A stretch of DNA of 40,437 nucleotides from the NCBI GenBank assembly GCA_018895075.1, contig JAHIOW010000056.1, forward strand, positions 1 through 40,437. The letters run 5' to 3'. Both the position numbers and the translations under genes were made by a program. The notes under the pieces are model-generated. The model was not told where the DNA came from. It saw only the letters and a program-made list of their open reading frames with translations, and did no database searches. Shown in pieces: positions 9,105 through 24,392 of this stretch. This stretch comes from Candidatus Omnitrophota bacterium. GTDB lineage: Bacteria; Omnitrophota; Gorgyraeia; Gygaellales; Profunditerraquicolaceae. Within the stretch, counting starts at the first letter, position 1; every line of letters starts with the position of its first letter.

Positions 9105-9710
9105 ATGAAGATATTTATAGTTTTGGGGATAGTATTTTATGCGCTGGTGCTTATTTTAATCGGGGTAGTATTTATCGTTTTTTCTCTTAACCTGTTGCAG
9201 CCCCAGGATATAAATAACCTGCTTGCCTATCTGCAATACAGCCCCAATTCCAGGATTATCATCGGGCTTTCCGGCCTTTTATTGATATTGATCAGTTTCT
9301 CTTTTGCGCAGTTGATCCTGGGCCGGTTTCAGCGCGAAAGGACGATTGCCTTTACTACTTCTTCCGGAGAAGTAACCATCGCGCTTTCCGCAATTGAGGA
9401 TTTAATAAAACGCCTCGGGGTTAATCTACCCGAAATAAAAGAATTAAGGCCTGATGTCATTGCTACCAAAAAAGGCATTATTGTTGACCTGAGGGTTATT
9501 TTAAGATCAGAATCAAATATCCCTGAATTAACCGCCCGGCTGCAGGAAATAGCCAGGTCTAAGATCCAGGAGGTCTTAGGCCTTGAAGAACAGATTATTA
9601 TCAAGATTCATGTCACCAAGATAATTCTCGCTGAAGAAAAAGAAAGAAAGAAAAAAGAATCGGAAAAAGAAGAACCGACTATTCCGTTTAGCAGCTACGG
9701 CAAAATCTAA
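9105..9710 (+). CDS. amaP: AmaP-like alkaline shock membrane anchor protein
   Basis: This is about 201 residues. Two membrane helices lie at about 5-30 (IVLGIVFYALVLILIGVVFI) and 50-70 (IIIGLSGLLLILISFSFAQL). A cytosolic Asp23-like domain follows (GEVTIALSAIEDLIKRLG ... IIVDLRVILRSESNIPELTA), then a highly charged tail. AmaP proteins hold Asp23 at the membrane. I chose the ATG at 9105 over the GTG at 9102 because of its spacing to the AAAGGGGG site at 9091-9098. The stop codon TAA (9708-9710) is also the first bases of repeat element A. Confidence 0.82.
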   Translation: MKIFIVLGIVFYALVLILIGVVFIVFSLNLLQPQDINNLLAYLQYSPNSRIIIGLSGLLLILISFSFAQLILGRFQRERTIAFTTSSGEVTIALSAIEDLIKRLGVNLPEIKELRPDVIATKKGIIVDLRVILRSESNIPELTARLQEIARSKIQEVLGLEEQIIIKIHVTKIILAEEKERKKKESEKEEPTIPFSSYGKI

Positions 9711-9895
9711 GTGAGGCCGCGACTTAGCGAACAAAAGTGAAGCTAAGTCGTTTGGCCGAACTTACCCCTCACTCAGCCAGCAGCAAAGAAAGCTATGGTT
9801 TTCTGAGTGAGGGGTTAAATTCGCGCAAAATAACTTACTTCGTATTTCATACTCCCTGCCTGCCGGCAGGCAGGCGTAAGTTATGCGCTCATTTA
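9708..9895 (+). repeat. structured palindromic element, copy A
   Basis: This 188-nt element lies between the amaP-like stop and the phosphofructokinase ribosome-binding site. Nested pairings: an outer TAAGTGAG (9708-9715) with CTCATTTA (9888-9895), one G-U; GGCC plus CGACTTAGC (9715-9728) with GCTAAGTCG plus GGCC (9742-9757); CCCCTCACTCAG (9765-9776) with CTGAGTGAGGGG (9803-9814); ATAACTTAC (9830-9838) with GTAAGTTAT (9876-9884). The core 9756-9828 is 71/73 identical to copy B at 23342-23414 (opposite strand). The last hairpin holds a separate 20-bp palindrome. It is either a mobile palindromic element or a structured leader. The frame through it happens to be open and fused to the enzyme gene, which I regard as accidental. 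Confidence 0.85.
9855..9874. repeat. 20-bp perfect palindrome, copy 1
   Basis: CCTGCCTGCCGGCAGGCAGG is a perfect inverted repeat and recurs at 27304-27323. Here it lies inside the apical part of the last hairpin of element A, where copy B has no equivalent, so it looks like a secondary insertion. Confidence 0.9.
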
Positions 9896-9910
9896 AGGAG
9901 GAATTTATTT

Positions 9911-22042: not shown

Positions 22043-22474
22043 CTCCACCTCATCCGCAGTAATCCGCCCCACAGTTGCTTCCTTAATTACATCGCCTTCT
22101 TTGACCACCCGGTTATTTATTAAGGCATACCTGGTATCGTCTGATAAAAATACGCCGCTTAAGACAAATTGAGCTTCTTGAGCCTGCGGTTGCTTCTTAA
22201 TTGCGGAAATTACAGTAGCGGCTTTGGTTTCTTCCGGGATAATCGGAGTTACCTCTTTAGCTGACTGTTGCCCTGGTGCTGATGCCGGGATTGGTGCTCT
22301 CCTGAACAGGAGGTTAAAAGAAACATTGGCGATAAGGAATCCCACGCATACTATCCCCAGGTACAATAAATAAATCTTAAATTTAGGGCTGGTTTTTTTA
22401 TCGGTCTTGGGGCTCGCCTGGGGATTGGGGTGCGTGGCCTCAACTTTTTTTAAGGCATCATATATGATGCTCAT
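22004..22474 (-). CDS. GspB-like type II secretion assembly protein
   Basis: This 156-residue protein starts MSIIYDALKKVEA, the hallmark of GspB proteins (MSYILDALRKAE type). One membrane helix follows (YLLYLGIVCVGFLIANVSFN, about 35-55), then a Pro/Ala linker and a C-terminal T2SSB-like domain (FVLSGVFLSDDTRYALINNR ... VELQLGDAVIKLSL). GspA/GspB help the outer-membrane secretin assemble through peptidoglycan. The ATG overlaps the gspA stop by 4 nt. No other secretion gene is present in the window. Confidence 0.85.
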   Translation of the reverse strand: MSIIYDALKKVEATHPNPQASPKTDKKTSPKFKIYLLYLGIVCVGFLIANVSFNLLFRRAPIPASAPGQQSAKEVTPIIPEETKAATVISAIKKQPQAQEAQFVLSGVFLSDDTRYALINNRVVKEGDVIKEATVGRITADEVELQLGDAVIKLSL

Positions 22475-23295
22475 TTTTCTACTTTCTGAAATTTAGGATT
22501 CAATTCCGCAAGGCACTCCTCTATTATATCCGAATCTATTATACCGGTCTCCTTGATGAATCCGGCTAACAGGGCGCGGTCGCAGATGATATTAATCAAA
22601 CGGGGCATGCCGCCGGAGAAAGCACATATCGCCTTTAAGGCCTGGTCAGTAAATTTTATCCTGGTTCCGGAGCCGGCGATATTCAGGCGGTGATTTATGT
22701 AATCCTTTACCTCATTTTCCTCTAGCGGCGTAATATGATACCTGACCATTATCCGCTGTTTGAGTTGCCGCAGTTCATAAAGGTCTAAGCGGTAGTTTAA
22801 CTCCGGCTGGCCCACCAGTACAATCTGGATTAACTTGTGCTTCTCGGTCTCTAAATTTGAGAGCAGGCGGATCTGTTCCAATGCCCGCGGCCTTATGTTT
22901 TGCGCCTCGTCAATGATGAGCACGATATTATTGCCGTGCCTGGACTCGTTTAATAAAAATTTATTCAGTTCCCAGACAAAAGAAAAGCGGGTTTTGTCCC
23001 GCGCGTGGATGCCAAAATCTTTGATGATTGCCTCCAGCAATTGAACCTCGGAAAAATTGGGATTGAGTATAAACGCGGTCTTGACATCTTTGCCTAACTG
23101 GTTGAGGAAAAAACGGCAGAGGGTAGTCTTTCCCGCGCCTATCTCTCCGGTGATGACCAGGATGCCTTTTCTCTGGGTCACGCCGTAGAGAAGGTGCGCC
23201 AGCGCCTCCTTGTGTTTTCCGCTTAGGAAAAAGAAGGAGGGGTCAGCGGTAACGTTAAACGGCCTGTCCTTTAATCCATAGAATTGACAATACAT
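22471..23295 (-). CDS. ExeA/GspA-like AAA ATPase
   Basis: This 274-residue protein starts MYCQFYGLKDRPFNVTADP, as ExeA proteins do. It has Walker A VITGEIGAGKTTLCRF, Walker B NIVLIIDEAQN, and arginine-rich sensor segments (QIRLLSNLE, GGMPRLINIICDRALL). The C-terminal peptidoglycan-binding domain of full ExeA is missing, as in many short homologues. I prefer the ATG at 23295 over one at 23310 because the family begins exactly there. Its 5' region is element B and the promoter at 23492-23519. Confidence 0.88.
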   Translation of the reverse strand: MYCQFYGLKDRPFNVTADPSFFFLSGKHKEALAHLLYGVTQRKGILVITGEIGAGKTTLCRFFLNQLGKDVKTAFILNPNFSEVQLLEAIIKDFGIHARDKTRFSFVWELNKFLLNESRHGNNIVLIIDEAQNIRPRALEQIRLLSNLETEKHKLIQIVLVGQPELNYRLDLYELRQLKQRIMVRYHITPLEENEVKDYINHRLNIAGSGTRIKFTDQALKAICAFSGGMPRLINIICDRALLAGFIKETGIIDSDIIEECLAELNPKFQKVEK

Positions 23296-23297
23296 TT

Positions 23298-23492
23298 TAA
23301 ATGAGCACATAACTTACGAACACGTTAGTGTGAGTAAGTTATTGTGCGAATTTAATCCCTCACTCAGAAAACCATAGCTTTCTTTGCTGCTGGCTGAGTG
23401 AGGGGTAAGTTCGGATATATAAGTTATGTTTCAGCCGCAGGCTGATCCGCCTTCGGCGGACGCTATCGCTCCATAACTTATGTCCTCACTTA
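23298..23492 (-). repeat. structured palindromic element, copy B
   Basis: Read on the minus strand, this 195-nt element has the same plan as copy A. Outer TAAGTGAG (23492-23485) pairs with CTCATTTA (23305-23298). Then come ATAAGTTATG with CATAACTTAT (+ coordinates 23472-23481 and 23419-23428), enclosing two small hairpins (TCCGCC/GGCGGA and CAGCC/GGCTG); CCCTCACTCAG with CTGAGTGAGGG (23394-23404 and 23357-23367); and ATAACTTAC with GTAAGTTAT (23334-23342 and 23309-23317). The core 23342-23414 matches copy A at 71 of 73 positions. The element ends two bases before the gspA ATG. Confidence 0.85.
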
Positions 23493-23519
23493 TTATAACA
23501 AAAATAATACCTTTGTAAA
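23492..23519 (-). promoter_or_regulatory. promoter of the gspA-gspB operon
   Basis: On the minus strand TTTACA (23519-23514) and TATAAT (23497-23492) are 16 nt apart. Transcription would begin near 23485, inside the first arm of element B, so nearly the whole element would be the 5' leader of the gspA mRNA. Confidence 0.65.
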
Positions 23520-23529
23520 TTACTATTGC

Positions 23530-23748
23530 CAAATAGACCTGCATAGATAATCAATAGCGGGTCCTGTCGAGGCGTGCTTCTCGCCGCACCGCTTGATTTT
23601 CCCCAGCGTGGAAAATCTGCGCTCGAGCGAAAACTCTTGCTCTGCCAGACTTTGTAAATAGCTGGGCAACCGTGCCCGCAAGAGTTTTCTAACGTGCTGC
23701 TCGAAGCACACCTCGCCACCCGCTAAAAACATCAAGAATGCCTATTTG
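23530..23748. repeat. structured palindromic element C
   Basis: This 219-bp stretch without a credible gene folds on itself as nested arms. CAAATAG (23530) pairs with CTATTTG (23742-23748). GCAT (23541) pairs with ATGC (23738). TAGCGGGT (23555-23562) pairs with ACCCGCTA (23718-23725). GAGGCGTGCTTC (23569-23580) pairs with GAAGCACACCTC (23703-23714), 11 of 12. Inside lie GATTTTCC/GGAAAATC (23595/23610), the palindrome CGCTCGAGCG (23620-23629), AAAACTCTTGC/GCAAGAGTTTT (23630/23678) and GGGCA/TGCCC (23664/23673). Its sequence is unrelated to A and B but the branched plan is alike. Confidence 0.75.
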
Positions 23749-23967
23749 ATAACGAACCTGGCGATATTTCGAGCGAATGGAGGTTTTAGCCAATGGAGCT
23801 TGAGTATTTCGGGAATCTCCGTGGAGCGAAGCGACAAAACGGGGATGGCGATGCTGTCTGAGGAGCATTTGCTAGAGCAAATGCGACGAGTTCAGCAGCC
23901 ACCGAAATGCGAAAGATCATTGGCGTTAAAAAACCGACTTGAGCGAGAAAATCGCCAGGTTCGTTAT
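23749..23967. repeat. structured palindromic element D
   Basis: This directly abuts element C. Its ends form a perfect 17-bp inverted repeat (23749-23765 with 23951-23967, starting ATAACGAACC). Further in: GGTTTT/AAAACC (23782/23930), GCCAATG/CATTGGC (23789/23918), GTATTTCGG/CCGAAATGC (23804/23902, one G-U), then two branches, ATCTCCGT/ACGGGGAT (23815/23839, one G-U) and GGC-TGCTG/CAGCA-GCC (23847/23893) capped by GCATTTGCT/AGCAAATGC (23865/23876). Length equals that of C (219 bp). An open frame runs across it on the + strand but looks like chance. Confidence 0.78.
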
Positions 23968-23998
23968 AAGCTTATTCTCATGCTAAAATGCAAAGGTG

Positions 23999-24027
23999 TT
24001 GACAGGCGGATAAATATATGTTATAGT
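23999..24027 (+). promoter_or_regulatory. promoter of the PilZ gene at 24048
   Basis: TTGACA (23999-24004) and TATAGT (24022-24027) are separated by 17 nt. The start would be near 24034, leaving a very short leader that contains the Shine-Dalgarno GGAGGGGAG before ATG 24048. Confidence 0.75.
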
Positions 24028-24047
24028 TTTCATAACCCGGAGGGGAG

Positions 24048-24392
24048 ATGGATACAAATTTTCAGGAAAAAAGGAGTTCCCCTCGTGTAAAACTGCAGAG
24101 GCCTTTGCGTTATCAACTGAGAGGCCTCCCTGAGTTTAATAATGTCATTGGTGATAACATCAGCACCGGTGGAATAGGTTTTTTCAGTGATAAATTTATC
24201 GCCCCTAACACATTGACAATGCTGGAAATCAATATATTATCCCGGATGCTCAGGGCTGTAGGAAAGATTGTCAGGTCAGTGTATTTATCGCACTCTAATA
24301 AATATTATTTAGGTATAGAGTTCTTAGAGTTAGACCCAATAGAACAAATGTATCTGGGTGATTTTATAAATATGCAAAGGACTAGATTCTAA
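24048..24392 (+). CDS. PilZ domain protein
   Basis: This 114-residue protein is a single PilZ domain. The c-di-GMP motif is present: EKRSSPRVKLQ (RxxPR) near the N-terminus and GDNISTGGIGFFS (NxSxxG) about 25 residues later, followed by beta strands KYYLGIEFLEL. Such proteins bind cyclic di-GMP and pass the signal to partners in motility, secretion or polysaccharide synthesis. It is divergent from the gspA/gspB pair and has its own promoter. Confidence 0.9.
   Translation: MDTNFQEKRSSPRVKLQRPLRYQLRGLPEFNNVIGDNISTGGIGFFSDKFIAPNTLTMLEINILSRMLRAVGKIVRSVYLSHSNKYYLGIEFLELDPIEQMYLGDFINMQRTRF

What the first reader, a model, noticed from the sequence alone, without database searches (positions are those of the whole stretch)
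23749..23967. Element D: a second 219-bp branched palindrome that abuts element C
Perfect 17-bp terminal inverted repeats enclose a chain of five more helices with two internal branches. By my reading it has the same length as C (219 bp) and starts at the base after C ends. Two equal-sized, differently sequenced structures in tandem suggest a repeated insertion process or a modular array.
Basis: seen in the sequence. Interest (0 to 1): 0.7.

Follow-up and report, generated by a model that had tools for sequence, protein, structure and literature searches.

The report
Folded jumping DNA repeat in Omnitrophota
The 217-bp branched palindrome is one copy of an apparently undescribed family of small non-coding jumping repeats of Omnitrophota bacteria, whose whole fold, on one strand, has been kept by paired mutations across dozens of species, and which often sits just behind a second folded repeat.

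Summary
Element D is real. It folds with z = -8.5 and recurs as a unit of about 215 bp with the same ends: 102 distinct full-length copies were recovered, nearly all from Candidatus Omnitrophota MAGs. No Rfam, plasmid, phage or viral-contig match was found. A 63-pair branched structure holds in 30 copies (91.5% of cells paired; 38 pairs change on both sides, against 22 in shuffles). Mismatches are mainly G.T and G.A on the + strand, so that strand is the one folded.

D is mobile: relatives have an empty ExeA/PilZ gap, near-identical copies occur in one genome, and an orthologous slot is empty, or holds D, C or another element. There is no target-site duplication; flanks are AT-rich, and D's right end often lies just after a stop codon.

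C is 175 bp (23555-23729), not 219, and it does not abut D; about 20 bp separate them. The pairing itself is genuine: C lies near D in 15 copies, always to its left and in the same orientation.

Best reading: a non-autonomous, REPIN/RPE-like structured mobile element, moved by an unidentified enzyme acting on a single-stranded fold. RAYT/Y1 transposases and reverse transcriptases do not track it. New variant of a known kind.

The parts
23750..23966 (+). Element D: mobile structured palindromic repeat; the + strand is the folded strand
   Evidence: fold; HMM unit boundaries; covariation; strand asymmetry; empty site
23749..23770 (+). left arm of D terminal stem (P1 23751-23765, P1b 23767-23770), end motif WAAYGAACCTG
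   Evidence: 16 of the 19 pairs of this stem show changes on both sides across 30 copies
23947..23967 (+). right arm of D terminal stem, end motif CAGGTTCGTTW; this end is the exact outer boundary of the duplicated block in G032
23782..23935 (+). D inner helices: P2 23782-23787/23930-23935, P3 23789-23794/23919-23924, P4a 23799-23801/23913-23915, P4 23805-23812/23902-23909, then a three-way junction with P5 23816-23821/23840-23845 and P6-P7 23847-23900; conserved GAGCGA tandem-G.A internal loop outside P2
23555..23729 (+). Element C: second structured dispersed repeat, 175 bp, ends TTTAGCGGGT; recurrent left partner of D
23730..23749 (.). AT-rich linker between C and D (8-29 nt in other C-D pairs)
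23301..23495 (.). Another palindromic repeat (B) of the same intergenic region; related copies elsewhere in this genome, including 9700-9900 (A) in the window
22471..23310 (-). flanking gene: AAA_22 ATPase (ExeA/GspA-like), one side of the divergent pair
   Evidence: Pfam; the ExeA-PilZ gap is 738 bp here, about 90-295 bp in relatives
24048..24392 (+). flanking gene: PilZ-domain protein, other side of the insertion site
   Evidence: Pfam

Best explanation
D is one copy of a non-autonomous, non-coding mobile element family of Candidatus Omnitrophota. SHOWN: (a) it is a precise unit of about 215 bp that recurs at unrelated sites with different flanks; (b) in single-stranded form the + strand makes a branched fold closed by a terminal stem, and this fold is conserved by compensatory changes over the whole element; (c) it inserts without target-site duplication into AT-rich intergenic DNA, often directly after a stop codon, and relatives have empty sites; (d) in about a quarter of copies it sits 8-60 nt to the right of a second structured element (C, or E), always on that side. 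INFERRED: it spreads when the + strand is exposed as a folded single strand and is recognised, cut and rejoined by an enzyme supplied in trans, in the way an HUH (Y1) transposase is thought to handle REPINs or handles IS200/IS605 ends. Because the whole fold, and not only the ends, is kept, the fold itself is probably the recognition signal. The mobilising enzyme was not identified.
For: Unit, ends and near-restriction to one phylum: (51 of 384 Omnitrophota genomes by a one-copy query that scored at most two candidates per genome, so a lower bound). Structure: 91.5% of 1869 cells paired, 38 of 63 pairs with changes on both sides, covariation score 0.330 vs 0.131 in shuffles and 0.05-0.08 in slid structures. 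Strand: G.T 55 vs A.C 19 and G.A 60 vs C.T 16 mismatches, above shuffled expectation (0.74 vs 0.57; 0.79 vs 0.65), per-copy sign 20:4. Mobility: ExeA-PilZ gap 738 bp here vs about 90-295 bp in relatives, none of which carries C or D there. The amidohydrolase 3' slot is empty in seven genomes and holds D, C or E in others. G032 has two D copies (shared 289-bp block, 98.6% identical, one indel in D) at different places, the block ending exactly at D's right end. Within-genome clades of near-identical copies. No TSD. Gene ends: D's right end is within 30 nt of a stop codon in 26 of 72 copies vs 6 for the left end. Partner polarity.
Against: No enzyme gene carries D-like ends. Y1 transposases were not detected in several D-bearing genomes (e.g. 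G029, 98% complete) and, where present, mostly lie between unrelated GGGGACGGTTCT-type repeats. The terminal AATG is paired in D, unlike the unpaired tag of REPs. Tandem genes are mostly antisense to the folded strand (34:16), which is not the obvious orientation for a lagging-strand mechanism. The covariation fits an RNA as well as a single-stranded DNA.
Confidence: 0.6

Rival explanations
1. D is a structured RNA: it is transcribed, folds as RNA, and has spread by an RNA-mediated route (reverse transcription or reverse-splicing-like insertion), perhaps as one bipartite RNA of about 410 nt with C as the 5' and D as the 3' domain.
For: The fold is kept over its full length with G.U and tandem G.A pairs on one strand. 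C is always 5' of D in the same orientation. Some variable hairpins have GNRA-type loops (visible).
Against: Reverse transcriptases occur in only 10 of 58 relatives and most D-bearing genomes lack one. No Rfam family matches even at E <= 1. Three quarters of D copies have no recognisable C or E. The folded strand is mostly antisense to the adjacent genes.
Confidence: 0.22
2. D is a REPIN/TIR element moved by the RAYT/TIRYT tyrosine transposases that these genomes carry.
For: Y1 genes are present in 43 of 58 relatives. In G040 a D-like copy lies about 80 nt upstream of one. Like REPINs, D is palindromic, intergenic, lies downstream of genes and clusters (PMC3733652, PMC3116915).
Against: Only 1 of 30 Y1 loci has a D. 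The Y1 genes' own repeats are GGGGACGGTTCT/AGTGTCCCC or AAGACCGTTTCT types, like the TIRYT repeats of PMC3733652, and unrelated to D ends. D-bearing genomes without any Y1 hit exist. There is no GTAG or CGTC tag.
Confidence: 0.12
3. D is a classical MITE: an internally deleted derivative of a cut-and-paste (DDE) insertion sequence that shares its terminal inverted repeats.
For: Terminal inverted repeats, small size, no coding capacity, dispersed copies.
Against: No target-site duplication of 3-9 bp at any tested offset. No ORF-bearing element with D ends was recognised in about 2.1 Mb of sequence in hand. The interior is as conserved and co-varying as the ends, which a MITE does not need.
Confidence: 0.05
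4. D is not mobile: it is a vertically inherited regulatory or terminator structure, or a chance palindrome.
For: Often lies just after stop codons. Some orthologous slots hold D in several genera.
Against: 0 of 200 shuffles fold as well. More than 100 copies at different sites, empty sites, near-identical duplicates in one genome. No T-run follows the stem: the 3' flank of both strands is A-rich.
Confidence: 0.01

Closest known systems
REP/REPIN elements with RAYT/TIRYT transposases (PMC3116915, PMC3733652)
   Same: Non-coding palindromic repeats between genes and mostly downstream of coding regions; clusters; no TSD found here; single-strand fold
   Different: Branched fold of about 215 bp instead of 20-40 bp hairpins; no GTAG/CGTC tag; ends fully paired; not associated with the RAYT/TIRYT genes present
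Rickettsia-specific palindromic elements, RPE (review PMC2229807)
   Same: Palindromic mobile repeats of comparable size (105-146 bp) with a long stem-loop, TSD listed as uncertain
   Different: No in-frame insertions inside genes among the D copies examined; different sequence and host phylum; full-length covariation and polar partner elements shown here
Bacterial MITEs such as Correia/NEMIS, ERIC, RUP (PMC2229807)
   Same: Small, non-autonomous, terminal inverted repeats, structured transcript predicted
   Different: These have a TSD and TA at the termini; D has neither
IS200/IS605 family ends (HUH Y1, single-strand hairpin transposition)
   Same: Works-like candidate: single-strand structures as recognition signal, no TSD (established knowledge)
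   Different: No tnpA/tnpB in D, symmetric ends, no Y1 gene with D ends found

Membership tests
REP/REPIN with RAYT | short (20-40 bp) hairpin with unpaired GTAG or CGTC tag | tested here: not met
   D is 215 bp and its ends WAATGAA are paired; definition from PMC3733652
REP/REPIN with RAYT | repeat of the same family flanks the cognate RAYT gene | tested here: not met
   1 of 30 Y1 loci has a D-like copy; flanking TIRs are of other types
MITE of a DDE insertion sequence | terminal inverted repeats | tested here: met
   17-20 bp arms in D, 54 copies
MITE of a DDE insertion sequence | target-site duplication | tested here: not met
   54 copies, lengths 3-9, all boundary offsets within 8 nt: about chance level
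MITE of a DDE insertion sequence | autonomous partner with the same ends | tested here: inconclusive
   none recognised among isolated D ends in about 2.1 Mb in hand; whole relatives' genomes not scanned for it
Rickettsia palindromic element (RPE) | insertion in frame inside protein genes, 105-146 bp | tested here: not met
   copies lie between genes or at gene ends; about 215-250 bp
Known RNA families (Rfam 15) | covariance-model match | tested here: not met
   no match in 23250-24060 at E <= 1
Works-like: single-strand (HUH/Y1) transposition | strand-specific fold and no TSD | tested here: met
Works-like: single-strand (HUH/Y1) transposition | cleavage and joining of the D strand by a Y1 enzyme | not testable with these tools
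   needs biochemistry

The most novel reading that the evidence does not exclude
C-D is a bipartite mobile nucleic acid whose entire branched fold (not just its ends) is the mobile and recognised entity, moving by a mechanism not linked to any transposase or reverse transcriptase found to track it, with a strict polarity rule for its modules; that is, a bacterial selfish structured RNA or ssDNA of a new type.
Probability: 0.25. Interest if true: 0.85.

Novelty: new variant of a known kind. Interest (0 to 1): 0.55.

Why it matters
Omnitrophota are widespread but barely cultivated, and the literature searches run here (open-access library) found no description of small structured mobile elements in them. 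Here a whole 215-nt fold is preserved by compensatory change across genera and families of the phylum while the element jumps between sites, and its modules (C, E, D) join with fixed polarity. If the fold itself is the signal, this gives a natural dataset of over 100 variants for asking how a mobilising enzyme, or an RNA-based route, reads a complex single-stranded structure. It also shows one intergenic slot that has been filled by different structured elements in different genera.

Tried and rejected
- Exact-end recurrence in the own genome: only D itself.
- Rfam at gathering and at E <= 1: only a tRNA elsewhere in the window.
- RAYT/Y1 as mobiliser: tested by presence, by loci and by their own TIRs; not supported.
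- Reverse transcriptase as mobiliser: rare; not supported.
- Target-site duplication: none.
- ORF-bearing element with D ends: an isolated D left end flanks a 165-aa ORF in L125 and a D end remnant adjoins an E element in L078, but nothing transposase-like was recognised by eye; the 165-aa ORF was not searched against protein families.
- Viral contigs (pattern search, 0 hits), plasmids and phages: nothing.
- Terminator: rejected because neither strand has a T-run after the stem.
- Vertical inheritance of D at one locus: the copy tree groups many copies by genome rather than by locus, so independent insertion or conversion is needed.
- First attempt at a whole-genome fold scan timed out; a coarser one worked.
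- A covariance model for D was not built; nucleotide HMMs were enough.

Full report
Observation. C (23530-23748 as given) also folds well (z -6.1). The region is the divergent gap between an ExeA-like AAA ATPase gene (22471-23310, -) and a PilZ gene (24048-24392, +).

Recurrence and boundaries. The 1.05-Mb own genome (fetched whole) holds one full D, one full C and a partial C. In 58 relatives the 501-bp query finds D and/or C in 41 genomes, and most matches fall into two blocks, window 23555-23729 and 23751-23965. A core pattern hits 103 stretches in GTDB genomes, nearly all named Omnitrophota, and none in viral contigs; plasmids and phages have none. A profile then gave 54 unique copies with both ends, and they start and stop within a base or two of each other: WAATGAAYCTG...CAGRTTCATTW. 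C copies align over 175 bp with ends TTTAGCGGGT. So the two units are about 217 and 175 bp, separated by about 20 bp; equal size and abutment are not upheld. In a draw of 384 genomes of the phylum, 51 have D by a one-copy nucleotide query that scored at most two candidates per genome, which is a lower bound.

Structure. In 30 aligned copies a 63-pair structure is standard-paired in 91.5% of cells, 38 pairs change on both sides (21.9 in shuffles), and the covariation score is 0.330 against 0.131 in shuffles and 0.05-0.08 when the partner is slid. The terminal stem is the extreme case: its sequence differs between copies while the two arms follow each other (16 of 19 pairs with double changes). 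Departures from Watson-Crick pairing are of the + strand type, G.T 55 vs A.C 19 and G.A 60 vs C.T 16. This exceeds what column composition gives (0.74 vs 0.57; 0.79 vs 0.65; 20 copies vs 4 in a sign test, p 0.0015). Related copies are not independent, so the p-value is optimistic. The conserved loops contain tandem G.A motifs (GAGCGA on both sides of the internal loop outside P2). The folded, selected molecule is therefore most likely the + strand, as RNA or as single-stranded DNA; these data cannot say which.

Mobility. (i) The ExeA-PilZ gap is 738 bp here but about 90-295 bp in the relatives that keep both genes, and none of those loci has C or D. (ii) After an amidohydrolase gene the next gene follows within about 25 nt in seven genomes (empty), while other genomes have D, C or E in that slot. 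(iii) G032 carries two D copies at different sites; the shared 289-bp block (98.6% identical) runs from the 3' third of C through the linker and ends at D's last base. (iv) Near-identical D copies group by genome in the tree. (v) Between sister genomes the same site can hold the element in opposite orientation (L115 vs L116; G190 vs G123). No target-site duplication was found. The four flanking bases on each side are AT-rich and complementary beyond chance.

Placement. Among 72 copies, D's right end is within 30 nt of a stop codon in 26 and its left end in 6; tandem neighbours are antisense to the + strand in 34 and sense in 16 (p 0.015). C lies within 60 nt of D in 15 of 102 full-length copies, always on the left and always in the same orientation (gap 8-29 nt). 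A third family, E, is also found only on the left. The two occur beside roughly a quarter of the D copies. This polarity is unexplained.

Mechanism. The REPIN/IS200-like route (folded single strand, enzyme in trans, no TSD) fits the anatomy best. The obvious enzyme, RAYT/TIRYT, was tested and is not supported: those genes are flanked by repeats of other types, many with GGGGACGGTTCT, resembling the GGGGWSAS repeats that PMC3733652 describes for TIRYTs; only 1 of 30 loci has D; and several D-bearing genomes have no Y1 hit. Reverse transcriptases are rare. So the mobiliser is unknown; the single-strand step is inferred, not shown. The RNA rival is the most serious one.

Known kinds. By anatomy D resembles REPINs and Rickettsia palindromic elements, but it fails the defining features of each that could be tested (tag and RAYT association for REPIN; TSD for MITEs such as Correia, ERIC and RUP; in-frame insertion for RPE; PMC3733652, PMC3116915, PMC2229807). 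Literature searches for Omnitrophota with palindromic or transposable repeats returned nothing relevant; that library lacks most subscription papers. Verdict: a real, well-supported, apparently undescribed family; a new variant of a known kind, with the mobilising machinery open.

Noticed in passing
window 9700-9900 and 23301-23495: Two further palindromic repeats (A, B) share a module of about 100 bp at 88% identity in opposite orientation, with ten or more partial copies elsewhere in this genome; their outer ends (TTAAATGAGC) resemble D's ends.
   Followed up: partly
L078:2593-2792 (own genome C63), plus L282, L171, L166, L275, L283, L155, L177, L184: Element E: a third structured family, nearly self-complementary, with variable but paired ends (e.g. 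ATTTTAGCTTTTGC...GCAAAAGCTAAAAT in L155, L177); in L078 it adjoins a 31-nt remnant of D's right end.
   Followed up: partly
L232-L261: Omnitrophota Y1 transposase genes (RAYT/TIRYT type) often sit between inverted repeats with GGGGACGGTTCT/AGTGTCCCC or AAGACCGTTTCT motifs, a TIRtron arrangement.
   Followed up: partly
L233 (G040:C1:873401-876760): Short REP-like hairpins (CACACTTACGTGTG, CACACGTAAGTGTG) at and beside the Y1 gene recur in adjacent pairs over this near-closed genome, a likely REPIN population.
   Followed up: no
L115, L116, L137 (genus g48): D sits inside a larger palindromic repeat (outer arms GGTTCTTTCGTAATTATTG...) found at several sites, and D is inverted relative to it in one copy.
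   Followed up: partly
L347 vs L350 (G190 vs G123): A whole C-D-(E fragment) cluster is inverted at the same intergenic site between two sister species; flanks are 86-89% identical, the cluster only 73%.
   Followed up: partly
L140/L226 (Elusimicrobia fen_1175), L190 (Planctomycetales bin), L172 (Aminicenantes bin): D-like copies in MAGs named for other phyla; could be transfer, misnaming or misbinning.
   Followed up: no
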